64,000 nucleotides of DNA, from NCBI RefSeq assembly GCF_017301635.1, contig NZ_CP071091.1:5840001-5904000 (forward strand), read 5' to 3'. This document shows, in pieces, positions 27,678-40,708 of the stretch. The position numbers and the translations under genes are program-made. A model generated the notes under the pieces. It had not been told where the DNA came from. It worked only from the letters and a program-made list of their open reading frames with translations, and ran no database searches. Position 1 is the first letter of the stretch; each line of letters starts with the position of its first letter. The DNA comes from Myxococcus landrumus. Lineage in GTDB: Bacteria; Myxococcota; Myxococcia; Myxococcales; Myxococcaceae.

Positions 27678-28040
27678 ATGATGAACCCAGTCAGTCTCGA
27701 TAGCAGCAGCGTGGCGGATGACCGTCGTTTGTTTCCACGCCTCCAGGCACCGCTGTACGCGCGCCCGGCCCGGCTGAAGTTCGGAGACAAGCAGCGGGTG
27801 CTGGATGCCAGCCTCGGTGGCGTGCGCATCTACTCCGACGAGCTGTACTCCGAGGGCAGCCAGCTCGAGGTGGACCTGTATCCCGGGGACGGCTCCACGC
27901 TGGAGTGCCGCGCCCGCGTCGCGTGGCTGCGCAAGCTGCCCAAGGACGCCGTGGCCCGGTACGAAGTCGGCCTCGCGTTCATGGACGTCTCGCCGGAGAC
28001 GCTCGAGCGGCTCAAGTCGGTGCTCGTCGCCGAGGACTGA
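27678..28040 (+). CDS. PilZ domain protein
   Basis: A 120-residue stand-alone PilZ domain. The two c-di-GMP-binding motifs are intact: RLFPR (RxxxR) near residue 17-21 and DASLGG (DxSxxG) near residue 43. It should act as a c-di-GMP receptor, likely by binding a partner protein. ATG 27678 (or 27681) is chosen because GGGGGGAA lies 6-8 bp upstream; an in-frame ATG at 27663 lies inside that purine run's upstream side and lacks a ribosome site. The last 29 bp overlap the convergent TetR gene. Confidence 0.85.
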   Translation: MMNPVSLDSSSVADDRRLFPRLQAPLYARPARLKFGDKQRVLDASLGGVRIYSDELYSEGSQLEVDLYPGDGSTLECRARVAWLRKLPKDAVARYEVGLAFMDVSPETLERLKSVLVAED

Positions 28041-28701
28041 GCCCCTCCGCCGAGCCCTCCGCGAACTCATCCCAGAGGGCTCGCAGCTCCTGCTCCACGC
28101 CTGGCACCGACGCGGAGGCCAGGCTGCCGCCGCCTCGGAAGAGGGACAGGCCCTCGAAGAACGCCATCAGCAGGGCCGCGCGCCGCTCCCTCCGAGCGGG
28201 GGTGAGGGTGGGCATGAGCTCCTGCAACAGCTCGACGAGCCCCTCGCGATAGCCCCCGTAGAACACGCGCAGCGCGTCCGCGACCATGGCGTCCCGCGCG
28301 GCCAGGGCCCACAGCTCCGCGAAGAGCTGGAAGTGCCGGGGCGAGTCCTGGTCCTCCAGGATGGAGTCCAGCGCGTGGCGCAGCCGCTTCGCGGGCTCCT
28401 TCGCCCCCGCCTCCATCCGCTCCCGGACGCGGCGGATGGTGCCCTCCAGGTAGCGCGAGAGCAGCGCGCGCACCACGTCCTGCTTCGTCGGGAAGTAGTA
28501 CTGGAGATTGCCCAGGCTCAGGCCCGCGCGCTGCGCCACGCCGCGCAGGCTCAGGCCCGCGTAGCCATCCTCCACCAGCACGTCCATGGCCGCATCGAGG
28601 ATGCGCTCCACGCGCTCGTGTCCCTTCGCGTGGACAGCGGTGCCTTCCCGGGGCTTCGCGGAGGGGAGCTTCCCCACCGTGGGCTTCTCACGCCGCGCCA
28701 T
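28012..28701 (-). CDS. TetR-family transcriptional regulator
   Basis: A 229-residue repressor-type regulator. After a basic leader, residues from RVERILDAAMDVLVEDGYAG to LSLGNLQYYFPTKQDVVRAL form the TetR helix-turn-helix, and the C-terminal all-helical domain would bind a small ligand. It starts within the stop of the saccharopine-dehydrogenase-like gene (TGATG overlap), so the two are cotranscribed and translationally coupled. A perfect 6-bp inverted repeat lies just upstream of that operon at 29845-29860, a likely autoregulatory operator. The final 29 bp overlap the PilZ gene on the other strand. Confidence 0.88.
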   Translation of the reverse strand: MARREKPTVGKLPSAKPREGTAVHAKGHERVERILDAAMDVLVEDGYAGLSLRGVAQRAGLSLGNLQYYFPTKQDVVRALLSRYLEGTIRRVRERMEAGAKEPAKRLRHALDSILEDQDSPRHFQLFAELWALAARDAMVADALRVFYGGYREGLVELLQELMPTLTPARRERRAALLMAFFEGLSLFRGGGSLASASVPGVEQELRALWDEFAEGSAEGLSPRRRAPT

Positions 28702-29792
28702 CAGGCGGCCTCCTTCACCCGCGCTTCGTCGATTCTCACCTGGACTCCACACGCGCGCAGCGTGGCCAGTGTCTCATCCGCGCGAGGCTCGTGCTCGGGG
28801 AACCACACCCCCGGCGGAGGTGGCGGCGCGCCATCCCGTCCCAGGAGCCGCTCCACGCCCAGCAGGGCGCCCACGGCCGTGAGGTGTGCCTGGCCCTGGG
28901 GGTCCACGACCTCGATGCGAGCGTGGCCGCGTGCCCCCTCGACGTCGGCCAGCCAGGCGGCCTCGCCCCCTGTCCCCTTCGTCGCCAGCAGGGAGCGGCG
29001 CAGCGGCGTGAGCCGGGGATGCTGGAGCAGCCGGAGGATTCCCAGCCGCTGGAGCACCACCATCGTCCACGTCGCGGAGCCCGAGTCGTAACCCAGCCGG
29101 GTCGACACGCTCCTGGCCCCCAGCACCGCCGGCAGCGTCGCCTGCTCCGGGGTGTCCAGCCGGTACACGCGCGTGCTGCGGCCGTCCGCGAACGTCACCC
29201 GGCGGCCGTCCGTCAGTGGCAACACCTGCCGCTCCTGCCCCTGCTCCGTCACGTCGAAGGACAGCCCGAGCCGGTCCACGTACTCCAGCGAATCCGGCCC
29301 CGCCGCGTCCGCGAGCGCGAAGCGAATCCCCACGTCCACGCGATCCAGCGGGCCGACACGAGGCGCCACCATCGCCACCATGCGCGGCACCAGCCCCGCC
29401 ATCCACGCGGAGCCCAGCAGCACGGGCGCGCGCGGCGGAGTCCCAGACAGGCGCATCAGCGCGGCGCGCACCCGGGACGTCCAGCGGGTGATGTCCAGCA
29501 GGGGCACCCCGTCGCGCGCGGCCGACATCAGCAAGTAGTCCTCCGGGTCATTGACCAGCGACACCACCGCCCGAGGCTTCCCTCCCAACACCGCGAGCGG
29601 CTCCCGGGCGCGGATGTCCAGCGCCACGCCCTGGGCCCGCCCCAGCCGCTCCGCCAGCGCCTTCGCGGGCTCGCTCCTCCGGCCCGCGATGATGAGCGGC
29701 AGCTCCGGATGCCGCTCCCTCAACAGGCGGGCGAGCCTCTCGCCCACCACCCCGTAGCCTCCCACCAGGACCACGCTCTCCTCGGTCACCAT
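28701..29792 (-). CDS. Saccharopine dehydrogenase-like NAD(P)-binding protein
   Basis: A 363-residue protein with a Rossmann fold starting at once: VVLVGGYGVVGERLARLL (glycine motif GGYGVVG) and LIIAGRRSEPAKALAERLG. The C-terminal half resembles the saccharopine dehydrogenase-like family, which includes trans-acting enoyl reductases and membrane-associated reductases rather than true lysine-pathway enzymes. No lysine biosynthesis genes are nearby. ATG 29792 is chosen because GGGAG lies 6 bp upstream; ATG 29804 is four codons earlier. It is the first gene of an operon with TetR, diverging from the ceramidase gene, so its substrate may be lipid-related (inference). Confidence 0.78.
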   Translation of the reverse strand: MVTEESVVLVGGYGVVGERLARLLRERHPELPLIIAGRRSEPAKALAERLGRAQGVALDIRAREPLAVLGGKPRAVVSLVNDPEDYLLMSAARDGVPLLDITRWTSRVRAALMRLSGTPPRAPVLLGSAWMAGLVPRMVAMVAPRVGPLDRVDVGIRFALADAAGPDSLEYVDRLGLSFDVTEQGQERQVLPLTDGRRVTFADGRSTRVYRLDTPEQATLPAVLGARSVSTRLGYDSGSATWTMVVLQRLGILRLLQHPRLTPLRRSLLATKGTGGEAAWLADVEGARGHARIEVVDPQGQAHLTAVGALLGVERLLGRDGAPPPPPGVWFPEHEPRADETLATLRACGVQVRIDEARVKEAA

Positions 29793-29844: not shown

Positions 29845-29860
29845 TAGGTCGATTGACCTA
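29845..29860. promoter_or_regulatory. Palindromic operator candidate (TAGGTC-N4-GACCTA)
   Basis: Perfect inverted repeat TAGGTC (29845-29850) and GACCTA (29855-29860) around GATT, in a locally AT-rich patch. It lies 52 bp upstream of the saccharopine-dehydrogenase-like start and 60 bp upstream of the ceramidase start, between divergent genes. Length and symmetry suit a TetR dimer, and the regulator is encoded in the adjacent operon. Confidence 0.65.
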
Positions 29861-29920
29861 AATTTCAGCGGAATCGTCCCGGCGAGGTTTCCGGGCGTGG
29901 GTGCTACGCTGCCGCGCGAC

Positions 29921-30709
29921 ATGTCCGCGACTCCAACGGGCTACTGGGGCCCGAGCACCTCGACCGTGGATTGGTGCGAGACGAACTACCAGCACTTGTT
30001 CCACGTCGGAGAGCTGTTCAACTCCGCCTCCAGCCTCGTCCTCGTGCTCACCGGCTTGATGGGCATCGTGCTGCATCGCCGGGTGCTGGAGCGGCGCTTC
30101 CTGTTCGCGTTCGGCCTGCTCGCGCTGGTGGGCGTGGGCAGCACGGCGTTCCACATGACGCTGCGCCGCGAGCACCAGATGCTGGACGAGCTGCCGATGC
30201 TCTACCTGGCCATCGTCATCGTCTACATCCTCCTGGAGGACCGACCGCAGCGGCGCTTCGGCCACTGGTTCCCGCTGGTGCTATTCAGCCACGCGGTGCT
30301 CGTGACCTACCTGAACGCCTTCATGCAGGGCCCCGTCCAGTTCTTCCTCTTCCAGGTGAGCTTCGCGTCGCTGGAGTTCTTCGCGCTCGGCCGCACCTAC
30401 TTCCTCCAGAAGCGCAGCCCGGACGCAGGAACCCAACGACTGTTCCAGTTCGGCATCGCGTCCTACGCGCTCGCCATCGTGTTGTGGGTCAGCGACATCC
30501 AGTTCTGCCCCACGCTCAACGAGACGCTGCCTTCGCTCGGCGTCCCCAACCCACAGTTCCACGCGTGGTGGCACGTGCTGGTGGCCTTCGGGTTCAACGC
30601 GCTCCTGCTCGTCATCGCGAGGGAGCGGCTGAGGACGCTGGGGACGGAGGCCCGGCTCCAGCCCGTGATGGGGGTGATTCCGCGCGTGGCGACCTCACCT
30701 CGGGGCTGA
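29921..30709 (+). CDS. Alkaline ceramidase family protein, eukaryotic type
   Basis: A 262-residue seven-helix membrane protein strongly resembling eukaryotic alkaline ceramidases. It opens GYWGPSTSTVDWCETNY, and the active-site set of human ACER3 is present at a near-constant offset: calcium ligands Asp17, Trp18, Glu20, Asn22 and Glu31, and zinc-site residues Ser74, His78 (GSTAFHMTL), Asp89 (LDELPM), His214 and His218 (QFHAWWHVL). It should hydrolyse the amide bond of a ceramide or ceramide-like lipid to a sphingoid base and fatty acid. Myxobacteria make sphingolipid-type lipids, so a substrate is available. The start at 29921 matches the N terminus of the family. It is divergent from, and may be controlled by, the TetR operon. 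Confidence 0.88.
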   Translation: MSATPTGYWGPSTSTVDWCETNYQHLFHVGELFNSASSLVLVLTGLMGIVLHRRVLERRFLFAFGLLALVGVGSTAFHMTLRREHQMLDELPMLYLAIVIVYILLEDRPQRRFGHWFPLVLFSHAVLVTYLNAFMQGPVQFFLFQVSFASLEFFALGRTYFLQKRSPDAGTQRLFQFGIASYALAIVLWVSDIQFCPTLNETLPSLGVPNPQFHAWWHVLVAFGFNALLLVIARERLRTLGTEARLQPVMGVIPRVATSPRG

Positions 30710-33828: not shown

Positions 33829-35982
33829 TCAGATGCGCACGCCCAGGAACAAGCTGGGCCACAGGCGAGAACCGGTGACACCACGGCCAATCTTCCACTG
33901 GGGCAGCCACGTCACCTCGCGGTCCTCGTCATCCGGCGGCGGCTCGTAGATGTTGACCGACAGTCCCCCGAAGAGGGCGAAGCGCCGCTTCAGCTCCCAG
34001 CCCACGCTGGTGCGGAGCTGATAGATGCTGTTGCTCGACGTGTCCCCGAACGACTGGTACTGCCAGCTGCCGGTGGAGAGGTCCACGTCGACGTAGTAGC
34101 GGTCCGCCTCGCCGAAGGGCAGGTGCAGGCCCACGCCCAGCGACTTGAAGGTGCGCCAGGTCTCCGCCTTGGAGCTCACGCCAATGCTCGCGACGACGTG
34201 CACCGTGCGGCTGCCGTACTTCACGCCCACCGACAGCGGTGAGATGTCGTCCGTCCAGACCTCGAAGGAGATGCGCCCCTTGCGCACCAGGCTGAGCAGG
34301 CCGATGGGCACCGACACGTCATCCGCGATGTTGATGATGCCGAGCTGAACCCCGCGCACGTTGTCGGCCACGTTGATGAGGCCCACCTGCGCACCGGACA
34401 CGCTACCCGCCAGGTTGAAGATGCCCACCTGCGCGCCCACCAGGTCCTCCACCATGTTCACGGCGCCCACGAGCTGCAGGCCGCGCATCTCATGGTCCGC
34501 GCGGTTGCCCACCAGCGAGAGCTGGAGGCCAGAGAAGGCCCGCTCCGAGTAGTTGATGACCGCCGCCACCTGTCCGCCCGTCGCGCCACCAAACGCGAGG
34601 TTGCCGCCCATCGCGACCTGGAGCCCCAGCGCCTCGCCGCCGGTGACGTTGGCGATTCCGGCGACCTGCCCGCCCTCCATCGTCCCGTCCACCCAGCCCA
34701 CGCCTCCCGCGAGTCCCAGGCCCCGGAGCTGATACGAGCGGACCGCCAACCCGCCGAGCGCCACGTGGTTCAAGCCGCTGCCGCCCCACAGCGAGGAGGT
34801 GGACAGCGGCGGCACCAGCGACAGGTTGAGGGCCACCGTGGGCAGGTCCTCCCGCGCCGTCGCCGATTCCTGCGCCAGCGGCACATCCTTCGCCGGGCCA
34901 CCCCGCGACGCCGTGCGCGTGAGCGTCACCGGGACGAAGTCGCCCACGCGCAGCTCCACGTCGCTCTTGCTCCCGACGAGCAGCTCCGCCTCGAAGCGCT
35001 GCGAGGGCCGCTCCAGCGTGACGTGGTAGCGCCCCGCGTCCAGGCCCAGCGAGAGCCTCCGCCCGGACGGCTTCTGGAGCTCCGCCACCAGTTGGTTGCC
35101 CCAGTCACGCACGAAGAGGCGGCCCTGCACGTCCTCCGCGATGCGCACGCGCGCGGCGGAGCCTCGCAGGTCCGTCATCACCAGGTCGCCACTGCCCGCC
35201 AGCTGGATGTCATAGGCCGCGTGCTGCGGCCCGCCTTGCGAGCGCTCGGTGCGGGCCAGCGTCTCGTGGAAGGCGAACTGGTAGGCCTCGTGCAGCGTGA
35301 CACGCCCATCGCCCGTGGTGTCCGCCGCGCCACGAAGGCCGGTGACGAGGAAGTGCGTGAAGAAGGACGCGCCGATGACATCCGACTCCTGCGCCACTTC
35401 ATCCGCGGAGCTGGAGGCCAGGTACGCATGGCCGCGCACCTGCGCGGACGCATCCGTGAGGAACGCGGGGCGGCGCAGCCCTCCCTTGAACCGCGTGAGC
35501 GCGCCGGAGCCACACGAGTCGAGGATGGCGATGCGCACCTCCACGGGCACCAGGCCCATGAGCTTGCGCAGGTCCTCGTAGGGGACTCGCTCACCGCGAG
35601 GCAGCAGGCCATCCGCGTCCGAGTGGCCCGAGTAGTACACCACCAGCTCGCGCCGCACGCCCGGCGTCGCGGCCGCTTCGACGAGGGTGCGCAGCCGCTC
35701 CAGCGCCGCGAGCAGCGCGTCCCGGTCCGCCTCCAGCAGGAGCACCCGGTCCGTGGGCTGCACACCGCCCAGGTCCTCGAGGACACGCGACATGGCCAGC
35801 GCATCCGAACCCGCGTACCGCAAGCGCTCGCGCCCTGGCCCGCCCTCGCTGGAGCCGACAATCAGGGCGAAGCGGCGAAGCGTGGCGTCGGGCTCCTCCA
35901 TCCGCGCGGCGGCGTGGGAGTCAGCGCCCCACGCCACCAGCACCAGCGCGGCCAGCACTCCAGCTGTGCTTCTGCTCATCAT
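33829..35982 (-). CDS. Exported caspase-like protein with LA_2272-type surface repeats
   Basis: A 717-residue protein: signal peptide (to about SHAAA), a C14 caspase-like domain with His120 (VVYYSGHSDADG) and Cys157 (AILDSCGSGALTRFKGG), followed by an EF-hand-like stretch (DTTGDGRVTLHEAY), a beta-rich linker, and repeats after about residue 470 of the type GxQxGxxN (GLQLSLVGN, GLQLVGAVN, GAQVGIFN, GAQVGLIN, GVQLGIIN), matching the LA_2272 surface repeat. The C terminus looks like an outer-membrane beta structure. Caspase-type dyads cleave after basic or acidic residues; here the enzyme would act outside the cytoplasm. ATG 35982 and 35979 are adjacent options. Confidence 0.82.
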   Translation of the reverse strand: MMSRSTAGVLAALVLVAWGADSHAAARMEEPDATLRRFALIVGSSEGGPGRERLRYAGSDALAMSRVLEDLGGVQPTDRVLLLEADRDALLAALERLRTLVEAAATPGVRRELVVYYSGHSDADGLLPRGERVPYEDLRKLMGLVPVEVRIAILDSCGSGALTRFKGGLRRPAFLTDASAQVRGHAYLASSSADEVAQESDVIGASFFTHFLVTGLRGAADTTGDGRVTLHEAYQFAFHETLARTERSQGGPQHAAYDIQLAGSGDLVMTDLRGSAARVRIAEDVQGRLFVRDWGNQLVAELQKPSGRRLSLGLDAGRYHVTLERPSQRFEAELLVGSKSDVELRVGDFVPVTLTRTASRGGPAKDVPLAQESATAREDLPTVALNLSLVPPLSTSSLWGGSGLNHVALGGLAVRSYQLRGLGLAGGVGWVDGTMEGGQVAGIANVTGGEALGLQVAMGGNLAFGGATGGQVAAVINYSERAFSGLQLSLVGNRADHEMRGLQLVGAVNMVEDLVGAQVGIFNLAGSVSGAQVGLINVADNVRGVQLGIINIADDVSVPIGLLSLVRKGRISFEVWTDDISPLSVGVKYGSRTVHVVASIGVSSKAETWRTFKSLGVGLHLPFGEADRYYVDVDLSTGSWQYQSFGDTSSNSIYQLRTSVGWELKRRFALFGGLSVNIYEPPPDDEDREVTWLPQWKIGRGVTGSRLWPSLFLGVRI

Positions 35983-36077
35983 CCGCGTCCCACCCACTCC
36001 AGCCTCGGCCCGGCCTCTCGAGAGCACCGCTGGCATACCTCGGATGGCCGCCCCCGTGCGAACCATCCGTCACTGCG

Positions 36078-37005: not shown

Positions 37006-39726
37006 TTAGAAGCTTCCTTTCACGCCCAACACCGGGAGGATGGGGATGCCAGGAATGTCCCTGAGCTTTCGATACCGGTAGTCGTTGAAGACGAACTCGA
37101 CGTTCTTCGCGTTGTAGAGGTTCTGCACGTCCATGTAGAGCGCCAGGGTCCAGTTGTCGAAGCGCCAGCCCTTCTCGATGCGGACGTCCAACTGGTGGAA
37201 CGTGGAGGCTCGAGCGGAGAAGTAGCGGCCGTACGTGGGCCCGAAGTCGTTTGCATCCGAGTTGTAGATGTCACCCCGATTCGCCAGCGGCGTCGTCGGC
37301 CGACCGGTGGTGAGGCGGAAGCGGCCGCCCAGCTCCCAGCCGTTGCCCAGGAGGTAGGTGCCCACGAGCGTGAGGATGTGCGTCTGGTCCCAGGCGCTCA
37401 GGCCGTAGGTCTCCTCGCCGAAGCCTCCCGGCGGGCCCCCGTTGCCACCGAAGGAGTCGTCACGCTGGGGCTTGGCGCCCGCGCGGCCGTCCTCGGCGTG
37501 GCTGAGCGTGTACGAGAGCCAGCCGTACCACTTGTCCGTGGCGGAGGCGCGCTCCTTCTTCACCATCAACTCCACGCCGTACGCCTTGCCGATGCCCGCG
37601 TTGACGTAGCGGTCCTGGACGAAGCCGCCGTTCTCGGTGGGCCGCACATCACCGGGCGCCACCACGTTCTCGAAGCGGCGGTTGTAGAAGCCGGTGACGT
37701 CCACGTTCCACGACTCCCACAGCCGCTGCTCCACGCCGAGGCTCGACTGGAAGGCGCGCTGGTAGGCGAGGAGCGGGTTGCCGTAGGGCGAGTAGATGAA
37801 CTGGAAGGTGTCCGCGGGCTGGCTGTAGAGGCCCAGCGAGCCCTTGAAGGCGGTGTTCTCGCTGGCGGCGTAGCGGACCCACAGCCGGGGGTCCAGGAGG
37901 ACGTTGCGCGTGTCGCCCACCTTCTGGAGGTTGCCGCGCACGCCGGGGGTGATGGTGACGGGGCCCAGCTTGAAGTCCATCTCGGCGAAAAGGGCCCCGT
38001 CAAAGCCGTTCATCGTGAGCTTCTCGTGAATCATCTCCGCGACGGGCTCGGCGCCAGGGAAGGGCACGTACTCGGTGCCGCCCGGGGCGGGAGTCCTCGC
38101 GTCAATCTTCACGTGGTCGAAGTAGACGTCCAGGCCCGAGCGCAGGGTGAACTCGGGGGCCAGCTCCACCGTCACCAGCTCGCGCGCGCCCAACGAGTAG
38201 ATGGTGTCGTGCTCGGTGAAGGAGCCGACGCTGAAGTCGGTGTAGTCCACGCCGACATAGGGCGTGAAGACGGAGGTGAAGTTCCCCTTCCGGTACGTCC
38301 AGTCGCCCTTCAGCCGGTGGAAGCGCGTGCGCGAGTCCAGGGTGATGTCGCGGTCCTGCTTCTCACCACCCGACACCAGGCGCAGCTTGTCGTCGCTGCC
38401 GAAGGCCATGATGTAGCCGGTGCTGCGCGCGGCCCCGGGCTCCGGCGTCTCGCCGCGCTTGGCGCCGAGGTCCAGGCGCAGCTGGTAGTCCCAGTACACG
38501 GGGACGATGGAGAGCGTGGTGCCCTCGTCCTTCGGGAGGAACGCGGGCAGCAGCGCATCCACGTACGAGCGCCGCGCGGCGGCCGCCACGCTGATGCCCT
38601 CGGTGATGGGGGCCTCCAGGAAGAAGCCCGCGTCGAGCACGTCCACCTTGACGGAGCCGTGCACCGTGTCCGCCGCGCCCTTGCGCGTGCTCACGTCCAC
38701 CACGCCGCCCACCGCGCGGCCGTACTGGCTGCCGTAGCCGCCCGGGTAGAAGTCGAGCGAGTCGATGAACTCGCCGTTGACCACGGACGGGCCACCGAGC
38801 AAGTGGAAGAGGTTGGGGATGCGGACCCCGTCCATCATCGTCGCCGTCTGGCCCGGGTTGGAGCCGCGCACCAGCAGGTCGCCGGAGATGAAGGGCGCGC
38901 GCGCCACGCCCGGCAGCGTCTGGATGACGCGGATGGGGTCGCCGAAGGTGCCCGGCGTCTTCTGCGCCTCCTCGCGCGTGACGGTGCGGCGGACGACTTC
39001 CTTCTTCGGCCGCGCGGAGCGCACCACCGTCTCGAAGGCGCTCCCGGCCGGAGCCAGGTAGAGCTTCACCTCGGTGGTCTCGTTGGCCTTGAGCGTCTCC
39101 TTCGTCTGGTAGAGCTGGTAGCCGGAGGCGATGACGCGCATCGCGCACTCGCCCGGCGGCACCTCGAGGGTGAAGCGGCCCTCCTCGTCGGACACGGCCT
39201 CGGGGGCGTCCGCTTCGTCGCCGCAGCGCACGGTGGCGCCGGCCACGCGCGAGCGGCTGCCTCGGGAGATGAGCTGGCCGGTGAGGGTGGCCTTGGGGGC
39301 CTCGGCCTCGGCGGCGGCGCCTTCCGCGGGCGGCGGCGCGTTGAGGGTGAAGTTGTAGACGTACTCCACCTGCACCGGCGCGGGCACGCCGTCGACCTCG
39401 GCGGGCGAGAACTGGAACTGGCGCACGGCGGCGATGGCGGCCTCGTCGAAGCCGTTGCCGACCGGTTCGGTGGGCTGCACGTCCGTCACCGCGCCGGTGT
39501 CGCTGATGGTGATGATGAGGCGCACGGAGGCGGTGAGGCCCTGGGCGAGCGCCGCTTCGGGGTACTGGGCGCTCACGGACCGCACCAGCTCCGGGGCCTT
39601 GGTGATGGTGGGCTGCGGGGCCTGCGCGGCGGGGGCTTCCGGCTGCGGAGCCTGAGCGAGCGCCGGAGTGGCCACCCACATGGAGGCGGCGGCGAGCGCG
39701 GCGCGAGCTTTCACGTTCGAGGACAT
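37006..39726 (-). CDS. TonB-dependent receptor with N-terminal TonB-like domain (copy 2)
   Basis: A 906-residue outer-membrane receptor. The signal peptide ends at PALAQ. An N-terminal TonB_C-like domain (about residues 45-130) has LVRSVSAQYPEAALAQGLTA and FDEAAIAAVRQFQFSPAEVD; a carboxypeptidase-regulatory-like domain follows (GSRSRVAGATVRCGDE), then the plug with RVIQTLPGVARAPFISGDLL, a gap to GGVVDVSTRKGAADT, and a barrel ending VLGVKGSF. It is more similar in layout to the receptor at 9363 than to anything else here. Ligand unknown. It lies between tonB (179 bp before) and the partner lipoprotein (1 bp after). ATG 39726 is chosen for the signal peptide. Confidence 0.9.
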   Translation of the reverse strand: MSSNVKARAALAAASMWVATPALAQAPQPEAPAAQAPQPTITKAPELVRSVSAQYPEAALAQGLTASVRLIITISDTGAVTDVQPTEPVGNGFDEAAIAAVRQFQFSPAEVDGVPAPVQVEYVYNFTLNAPPPAEGAAAEAEAPKATLTGQLISRGSRSRVAGATVRCGDEADAPEAVSDEEGRFTLEVPPGECAMRVIASGYQLYQTKETLKANETTEVKLYLAPAGSAFETVVRSARPKKEVVRRTVTREEAQKTPGTFGDPIRVIQTLPGVARAPFISGDLLVRGSNPGQTATMMDGVRIPNLFHLLGGPSVVNGEFIDSLDFYPGGYGSQYGRAVGGVVDVSTRKGAADTVHGSVKVDVLDAGFFLEAPITEGISVAAAARRSYVDALLPAFLPKDEGTTLSIVPVYWDYQLRLDLGAKRGETPEPGAARSTGYIMAFGSDDKLRLVSGGEKQDRDITLDSRTRFHRLKGDWTYRKGNFTSVFTPYVGVDYTDFSVGSFTEHDTIYSLGARELVTVELAPEFTLRSGLDVYFDHVKIDARTPAPGGTEYVPFPGAEPVAEMIHEKLTMNGFDGALFAEMDFKLGPVTITPGVRGNLQKVGDTRNVLLDPRLWVRYAASENTAFKGSLGLYSQPADTFQFIYSPYGNPLLAYQRAFQSSLGVEQRLWESWNVDVTGFYNRRFENVVAPGDVRPTENGGFVQDRYVNAGIGKAYGVELMVKKERASATDKWYGWLSYTLSHAEDGRAGAKPQRDDSFGGNGGPPGGFGEETYGLSAWDQTHILTLVGTYLLGNGWELGGRFRLTTGRPTTPLANRGDIYNSDANDFGPTYGRYFSARASTFHQLDVRIEKGWRFDNWTLALYMDVQNLYNAKNVEFVFNDYRYRKLRDIPGIPILPVLGVKGSF

Positions 39727-39904
39727 GGGTCTTTCAGGGACGGCTGCGTGAAGAAGGGAGTCAGCCTCCCACCGGCAAAGGGACGGAGCGAGGAAGGGGT
39801 GGAGGAACCAGTGGACTTGCTCGGGCCGTGGAAGTGAGAGGCCCACTGGTGCACTCCCCCGCTCCGGCCCTTTCCCGGCGGGAGGGTGTTTCAAACTCAC
39901 AAGC

Positions 39905-40708
39905 TCAATCGAGGAGGAACGTATAGGCGTACTTCATCTCCGTGGAGACCGCCTCGCCCCCCTTGTAGGCGGGAGAGAAGCGGAAGCGGAGGATGGCGTT
40001 GCGAGCCGCTTCTTCCAGGCCGTAGCCCGGCCCCTTCAGCACGCGCGCCGCCACGACGCGCCCCTCGGGGTCGATGGTGATGGACAGCGTCACCGTGCCT
40101 TCGATGCCCGCGCGGCGGGCCTCTTCGGGATACGGAATCTTCACCTCGCTGGCGAGCTGCGGCTCACGGTCCACCTGGTAGATGGGCGTGTACTTGGGCG
40201 CGCTGTACGCCTTCACTTCTTGCGGCGCCTTGGCCCGGTCCGCGGTGCGTCCGTAGAGGGTGTTGCCCACCGGGGCCGCGAAGCCGCCGGCGCTGGTGGT
40301 CGAGGACATGGACATGCCGACGACCAGGGGCGTGGGCTTCGCGTTGGGAGGCGGCGGCTCGTTGGGCGGAGGCGGCGCGTCCTCGGGCGGCGGTGGCAGG
40401 GGCTTGGGGGCCTGGGCAACCTTGATGGGCGGAGGCTTGATGCGGACCTTGGGCGGAGGAGGAGGCTCCGGCTTGGGCTCCTCCTTCACCTCGGGCGGAG
40501 GCGGCGGCGGTGGCTTCGTCACCTCCACCATCACCAACTCCACGGGCTTCTGCGGGGCGGTGCGCTCCGGAGGCTTCGTGTGCAGCACCACCAACCCCAG
40601 CCCGTGCAGCGCGAGCGAGCCCGTGACGAACCCCACCAGCAACCCACTGCCGCCCCGTCGGGGCAGGACCAGACCATTGTCGAGCGCGCTCGTCGTCATT
40701 GCGTTCAC
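39905..40708 (-). CDS. tonB: TonB energy transducer
   Basis: A 267-residue TonB: cytoplasmic N terminus, one transmembrane helix (GLLVGFVTGSLALHGLGLVV), a Pro/Lys/Glu-rich periplasmic rod (PPPPPPPEVKEEPKPEP and PLPPPPEDAPPPP) and a C-terminal TonB domain (IPYPEEARRAGIEGTVTLSI, GLEEAARNAILRFRFSPAYK) that contacts receptor TonB boxes. It begins 1 bp after the exbD stop, so is translationally coupled. The receptor gene follows after 178 bp. Confidence 0.92.
   Translation of the reverse strand: MNAMTTSALDNGLVLPRRGGSGLLVGFVTGSLALHGLGLVVLHTKPPERTAPQKPVELVMVEVTKPPPPPPPEVKEEPKPEPPPPPKVRIKPPPIKVAQAPKPLPPPPEDAPPPPNEPPPPNAKPTPLVVGMSMSSTTSAGGFAAPVGNTLYGRTADRAKAPQEVKAYSAPKYTPIYQVDREPQLASEVKIPYPEEARRAGIEGTVTLSITIDPEGRVVAARVLKGPGYGLEEAARNAILRFRFSPAYKGGEAVSTEMKYAYTFLLD

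What the first reader, a model, noticed from the sequence alone, without database searches (positions are those of the whole stretch)
29921..30709. Eukaryotic-type alkaline ceramidase in a bacterium with all metal ligands kept
Seen: calcium (Asp17, Trp18, Glu20, Asn22, Glu31) and zinc-site (Ser74, His78, Asp89, His214, His218) residues in the spacing of human ACER3, with block identity such as DELPM and FHAWWH. Known: ACER-type ceramidases are chiefly eukaryotic; myxobacteria make sphingolipids. Inference: a ceramide-turnover enzyme, possibly of lateral or shared ancient origin.
Basis: partly seen in the sequence, partly recalled or inferred. Interest (0 to 1): 0.68.

Follow-up and report, generated by a model that had tools for sequence, protein, structure and literature searches.

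The report
Bacterial copy of human-type alkaline ceramidase
A predatory soil bacterium (a Myxococcus) carries a membrane enzyme with every metal-binding residue of human alkaline ceramidase 3, almost certainly of that same family and most likely cutting the bacterium's own ceramides, although nobody has yet shown the activity.

Summary
Window 29921-30709 (+) encodes a 262-aa seven-helix protein. It matches Pfam Ceramidase (197 bits); its only solved relative is human ACER3 (5e-36), and its AlphaFold model finds ACER3 first (E 1.6e-9, TM 0.73). The five Ca ligands, five Zn-site residues and the disulfide pair align exactly with ACER3. It is not unique. A full-site clade occurs in 36 of 195 Myxococcota genomes. 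That clade plus ACER3 separates at 100/100 support from a second myxococcotal PF05875 branch whose Ca site is broken. The full-site clade tracks serine palmitoyltransferase (32/36 against 53/159, Fisher 7e-10); the second branch does not (7/29). The host genome has an SPT-acyltransferase-epimerase cluster resembling the bacterial ceramide operon. New inferences: loop charge puts the Ca site and active site on the periplasmic face, and the gene has its own conserved start-proximal promoter-like motif (21 of 25) in otherwise unrelated neighbourhoods. Best reading: a bona fide ACER trimming self-made ceramides. Transfer direction between bacteria and eukaryotes is unresolved. Activity is untested. 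New member of a known kind.

The parts
29921..30709 (+). ACER-family alkaline ceramidase gene, 262 aa, seven transmembrane helices
   Evidence: Pfam PF05875 197 bits; PDB ACER3 5.4e-36; AF2 model pLDDT 84, best PDB fold match 6g7o E 1.6e-9
29969..29986 (+). Ca2+ loop D17-W18-C19-E20-x-N22 (= ACER3 D19WCE(X)N24)
   Evidence: Alignment; Ca site as described in PMC6303388; invariant in 26/26 full-site sequences
30011..30013 (+). E31, last Ca2+ ligand (= ACER3 E33, the leukodystrophy residue)
30140..30154 (+). S74xxxH78 of the Zn2+ active site (= ACER3 S77, H81)
30185..30187 (+). D89, active-site Asp in DELPM (= ACER3 D92)
30560..30574 (+). H214xxxH218 Zn2+ ligands in HAWWH (= ACER3 H217, H221)
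30506..30508 (+). C196, partner of C19 in the ACER3-type disulfide (= ACER3 C21-C196)
   Evidence: Both Cys kept in 26/26 full-site sequences; disulfide from PMC6303388
29902..29910 (+). Extended -10-like element TGcTACGCT ending 10 nt before the start codon: predicted own promoter, near-leaderless mRNA
   Evidence: TAnnnT ends 6-11 nt before the start in 21 of 25 homologous genes; 0-2 of 25 in upstream control windows

Best explanation
The gene encodes a genuine member of the ACER (alkaline ceramidase) branch of the CREST superfamily: a seven-helix inner-membrane Zn2+ amidase that hydrolyses ceramide or dihydroceramide to a free sphingoid base and a fatty acid, with a Ca2+-stabilised N-terminal loop as in human ACER3. 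Its likely substrate is the cell's own ceramide, made by SPT and predicted ceramide synthase and reductase genes elsewhere in the genome. Shown here: family membership, all ligands, fold, co-occurrence with SPT, conserved promoter-like motif. Inferred: the activity, Ca2+ dependence, a periplasm-facing active site (loop charge 2 versus 13), and the role (trimming or turnover of ceramides on their way to the outer membrane).
For: Pfam 197 bits, against 262 for ACER3 itself and 62-72 for the second myxococcotal branch. ACER3 is the sole clear PDB relative and first fold match. Full Ca/Zn/Cys sets invariant in 26/26. Tree: full-site clade with ACER3, 100/100. SPT co-occurrence 32/36 against 53/159, p 7e-10; by genus 8/11 against 16/79, p 9e-4. 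SPT in the same genome, 402 bits to Sphingobacterium SPT, beside a GNAT-like acyltransferase and an NAD epimerase-like gene. In Caulobacter, ceramide is finished on the periplasmic side of the inner membrane (PMC11087976).
Against: No activity data exist for this protein or any close bacterial homologue in the papers I could search. Four full-site genomes (G048, G081, G073, G077) lack this SPT type. Ten of 27 sampled genomes of the genus have SPT but no ACER, so it is dispensable for making sphingolipids. The gene is not near the sphingolipid genes. The N-terminal Ca loop is low-confidence in the model (pLDDT 47-59).
Confidence: 0.74

Rival explanations
1. It is an ACER-fold hydrolase that acts mainly on another N-acyl or O-acyl lipid of myxobacteria (ornithine-type lipid, ether lipid, N-acyl amino lipid), not on ceramide.
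For: CREST members cut diverse acyl lipids (PMC3146951); four full-site genomes lack the SPT type searched for; activity untested.
Against: Full ACER Ca loop and DELPM block, which the other bacterial CREST branch lacks; strong SPT co-occurrence for this clade only.
Confidence: 0.14
2. It mainly works in reverse or both ways, joining free fatty acid to a sphingoid base, so acting as a salvage ceramide synthase.
Against: The genome already has an SPT-acyltransferase-epimerase cluster that looks like the dedicated pathway; ten genus members with SPT do without this gene.
Confidence: 0.06
3. It processes ceramides taken from eukaryotic or bacterial prey rather than self-made ones.
For: Myxobacteria are predators (own knowledge); four full-site genomes lack the SPT type searched for.
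Against: The genome carries a separate neutral ceramidase of the PF04734/PF17048 type (572 and 184 bits), a better candidate for foreign ceramide; the ACER is an integral membrane protein; SPT linkage.
Confidence: 0.06

Closest known systems
Human ACER3 (PDB 6G7O, 6YXH)
   Same: Whole-length alignment, 7TM fold, all Ca ligands, Zn ligands, active-site Ser and Asp, disulfide Cys pair, DELPM and FHAWWH blocks
   Different: About 33% identical; bacterial; loop charge predicts the N-terminal Ca site on the periplasmic face, whereas PMC6303388 places it in the cytoplasm
CREST 'hypothetical groups 1 and 2' of bacteria (PMC3146951), here taken to include the low-scoring myxococcotal PF05875 branch
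   Same: Same Pfam family, Zn-site Ser/His/Asp/His/His kept in nearly all
   Different: Ca ligand D17 is mostly K/C/S and N22 mostly T/V; DELPM absent; separate clade at 100/99 to 100/100; not linked to SPT
Neutral ceramidase (PF04734/PF17048)
   Same: Same reaction, also encoded in this genome
   Different: Unrelated fold with a large water-soluble domain (PMC6303388)
Yeast Ypc1/Ydc1
   Same: Group with ACER3 next to the myxococcotal clade

Membership tests
Alkaline ceramidase (ACER) family, PF05875 | Whole-length match over the curated Pfam cut-off | tested here: met
   197.4 bits against cut-off 32.5, profile 1-241 of 259
Alkaline ceramidase (ACER) family, PF05875 | Zn2+ site: Ser, three His and Asp of CREST hydrolases | tested here: met
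   S74, H78, D89, H214, H218 align with S77, H81, D92, H217, H221
Alkaline ceramidase (ACER) family, PF05875 | Ca2+ site D-W-C-E-x-N plus Glu, said to be strictly conserved among ACERs | tested here: met
   D17 W18 E20 N22 E31; definition from PMC6303388
Alkaline ceramidase (ACER) family, PF05875 | Disulfide Cys pair (ACER3 C21-C196) | tested here: met
   C19 and C196 present, 26/26 in the clade; the bond itself not tested
Alkaline ceramidase (ACER) family, PF05875 | Seven-helix ACER fold | tested here: met
   AF2 model, seven long helices; 6g7o best match E 1.6e-9, TM 0.73 by query length
Alkaline ceramidase (ACER) family, PF05875 | Tree position with known ACERs, apart from other bacterial CREST proteins | tested here: met
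Alkaline ceramidase (ACER) family, PF05875 | Ceramide hydrolysis, alkaline optimum, Ca2+ dependence | not testable with these tools
   Needs an enzyme assay
Neutral ceramidase (PF04734) | PF04734/PF17048 domains | tested here: not met
   No such match for this protein; a separate gene in the genome has them

The most novel reading that the evidence does not exclude
Myxobacteria own a periplasm-facing, Ca2+-set ACER that releases free long-chain bases from self-made ceramides, and this bacterial lineage and the eukaryotic ACERs share one gene passed between the domains, although bacterial ceramide synthesis itself is built from different enzymes.
Probability: 0.3. Interest if true: 0.62.

Novelty: new member of a known kind. 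Interest (0 to 1): 0.44.

Why it matters
Bacterial ceramide synthesis is now well mapped, but in the papers I could search I found no intramembrane ceramidase reported for bacterial sphingolipid turnover. This protein is a ready candidate, a possible bacterial model for the enzyme whose E33 mutation causes leukodystrophy in people, and a probe of how eukaryotes and bacteria came to share a ceramide-cutting enzyme. It also suggests a simple rule (intact DWCExN...E loop plus DELPM) to separate likely true ceramidases from the many bacterial proteins annotated 'ceramidase domain-containing'.

Tried and rejected
Functional hint from neighbours: rejected. Genes next to the ACER differ between genera. 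The adjacent saccharopine-dehydrogenase-like and TetR genes are kept in ACER-less Myxococcus genomes, and the palindrome TAGGTC-N4-GACCTA between them and the ACER stays with the dehydrogenase when the ACER is 7 kb away (L021, L022), so it is not an ACER operator.

Spread by plasmids or phages: no hit in either collection; two viral-contig scans gave no relative.

Eukaryotic contamination: rejected; complete one-contig genome, GC3 like its neighbours, close homologues in named Myxococcus, Pyxidicoccus and Hyalangium genomes.

Remnant of the gene in ACER-less relatives: none found at the syntenic site (tblastn E 1e-4).

Direction of transfer: tested by AU tests, unresolved.

Full report
WHAT IS THERE. 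The window lies at 5.84-5.90 Mb of a complete 10,367,529-base genome. Named relatives of the gene come from Myxococcus qinghaiensis, M. eversor, M. dinghuensis, Pyxidicoccus and Hyalangium; the closest genome, G014 (95% protein identity), has 10,350,586 bases, which I recall as the length of Myxococcus stipitatus DSM 14675, so the host is probably M. stipitatus or a sister species (inference). The ORF 29921-30709 (+) encodes 262 residues. It is the only PF05875 gene in the genome.

RESIDUE CHECK. Numbering of the Ca2+ site in ACER3 (D19, W20, E22, N24, E33; disulfide C21-C196) was read from PMC6303388, and of the Zn2+ site (S77, H81, D92, H217, H221) from PMC9436119. In the alignment these fall on D17, W18, E20, N22, E31, C19, C196, S74, H78, D89, H214 and H218. 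Across 26 full-site myxococcotal sequences, down to about 30% identity with the window protein, all these positions are invariant.

FAMILY AND FOLD. Pfam Ceramidase 197 bits, against 262 bits for human ACER3 itself and 62-72 bits for three members of the second myxococcotal branch. phmmer against PDB gives ACER3 at 5.4e-36 and nothing else below 0.1. The AlphaFold2 model (31 sequences, mean pLDDT 84.4, pTM 0.84) has seven long helices; Foldseek returns ACER3 first at E 1.6e-9 with TM 0.73 by query length, then, far behind, other CREST proteins (Myomaker, adiponectin receptor 1) among unrelated seven-helix proteins. The N-terminal Ca loop is low-confidence in the model, so the geometry of the Ca site is not shown.

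DISTRIBUTION. In 195 Myxococcota genomes, PF05875 splits in two. A full-site type (137-215 bits over nearly the whole profile, plus one gene cut by a contig end) is in 36 genomes and 11 of 90 genera. A low type (about 22-75 bits) is in 29 genomes. The low type keeps the Zn site but mostly has K, C or S for D17 and T or V for N22, and lacks DELPM. With six eukaryotic rows, the tree puts the full-site type and eukaryotic ACERs together against the low type at 100/99. PMC3146951 describes alkaline ceramidases as a tight group populated in eukaryotes, with two bacterial hypothetical groups nearby; I infer that the low type belongs to the latter.

DIRECTION OF TRANSFER. In one search ACER1/ACER2 fall outside a clade of myxococcotal ACERs plus ACER3, yeast and plant rows, but the AU test does not reject eukaryotic monophyly (p 0.064) or bacterial monophyly (p 0.36, or 0.25 with verified rows only). 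Long branches are present. The question stays open, and other bacterial phyla could not be sampled.

LINK WITH CERAMIDE SYNTHESIS. The host genome has a Bacteroidota-type serine palmitoyltransferase (P0002; 402 bits to Sphingobacterium SPT; below the curated NCBIfam cut-off for SerpalmtaseCFB, though that is its best match). On the same strand follow a 393-aa GNAT-like acyltransferase and a 335-aa NAD epimerase-like protein, which resemble in kind the spt, bcerS and cerR genes of Caulobacter (PMC11087976); no direct comparison with Caulobacter sequences was made. Full-site ACER genomes carry this SPT in 32 of 36 cases against 53 of 159 for the rest (Fisher 7e-10); at genus level 8/11 against 16/79 (p 9e-4); the low type shows 7 of 29. 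Genome counts are not independent, so the genus figure is the one to trust. The exceptions G048, G081, G073 and G077 show only 33-39% identical paralogues.

LOSS OR GAIN WITHIN THE GENUS. Ten of 27 sampled genomes of the genus lack the gene, nine of them 9.0-9.5 Mb (by size probably the M. xanthus group, inference), though all have SPT and neutral ceramidase. In five such genomes the flanks (caspase-like, alpha/beta hydrolase, SnoaL-like on one side; dehydrogenase-like, TetR, PilZ on the other) are still in place with other DNA between and no ACER trace. In the Pyxidicoccus-like genomes the ACER is at another site. So the gene moves or is lost as a single unit.

OWN PROMOTER. In 21 of 25 homologous genes a TAnnnT hexamer ends 6-11 nt before the start codon, against 0-2 of 25 in upstream control windows; here it is TACGCT at 29905-29910, with TG before it. 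Related sequences share it by descent, but it persists in genes encoding proteins only 46% identical and in unrelated neighbourhoods. I infer a gene with its own promoter and a near-leaderless mRNA; it also supports ATG 29921 as the start.

MEMBRANE SIDE. With helix limits from the model, the N-terminus and loops 2, 4 and 6 hold 2 Lys/Arg and loops 1, 3, 5 and the C-terminus 13; the same direction holds in all 26 full-site sequences. By the positive-inside rule the N-terminal Ca loop, the Cys pair and the Zn site face the periplasm. This differs from the cytoplasmic placement of the ACER3 N-terminus in PMC6303388 but agrees with the cytosolic C-terminus reported for ACER2 (cited in PMC3146951). 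It would suit a disulfide, a steady Ca2+ supply, and access to ceramide, which in Caulobacter is completed on the periplasmic side. This step is inference.

VERDICT. A real ACER, confirmed ligand by ligand, most likely turning over self-made ceramide. Not unique to this genome and already covered by a Pfam family, but not described as a bacterial enzyme in the papers I could search. Interest moderate.

Noticed in passing
29845-29860: Perfect palindrome TAGGTC-GATT-GACCTA upstream of the saccharopine-dehydrogenase-like gene; TAGGTC-N4-GACCTA recurs beside that gene in L020, L021 and L022, so it is probably the operator of the nearby TetR repressor (28012-28752).
   Followed up: partly
L114:5899-9676 (G000:C1:1508898-1512675): SPT, GNAT-like acyltransferase and NAD epimerase-like genes in a row: a likely complete ceramide-synthesis cluster, with MMPL transporter and MlaC-like genes nearby.
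   Followed up: partly
L115:1362-3623 (G000:C1:6176361-6178622): Separate neutral ceramidase (PF04734 and PF17048) in the same genome.
   Followed up: no
L116:5094-5726 (Hymenobacter plasmid NZ_CP049908.1): A low-type 'ceramidase domain-containing protein' sits among RND efflux, metal-binding and multicopper oxidase genes, which suggests that this branch may not be a ceramidase.
   Followed up: no
33829-36066 (-): Caspase-domain (Peptidase C14) protein in a syntenic block kept across the genus; beyond it a gene (37009-39930) with TonB_C and TonB-receptor Plug domains.
   Followed up: no
L057:7745-8485 and L058 (G163): Two low-type CREST proteins that have DWCEEN/DWCEEE like true ACERs but N instead of the last Ca-ligand Glu: possible intermediates.
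   Followed up: no
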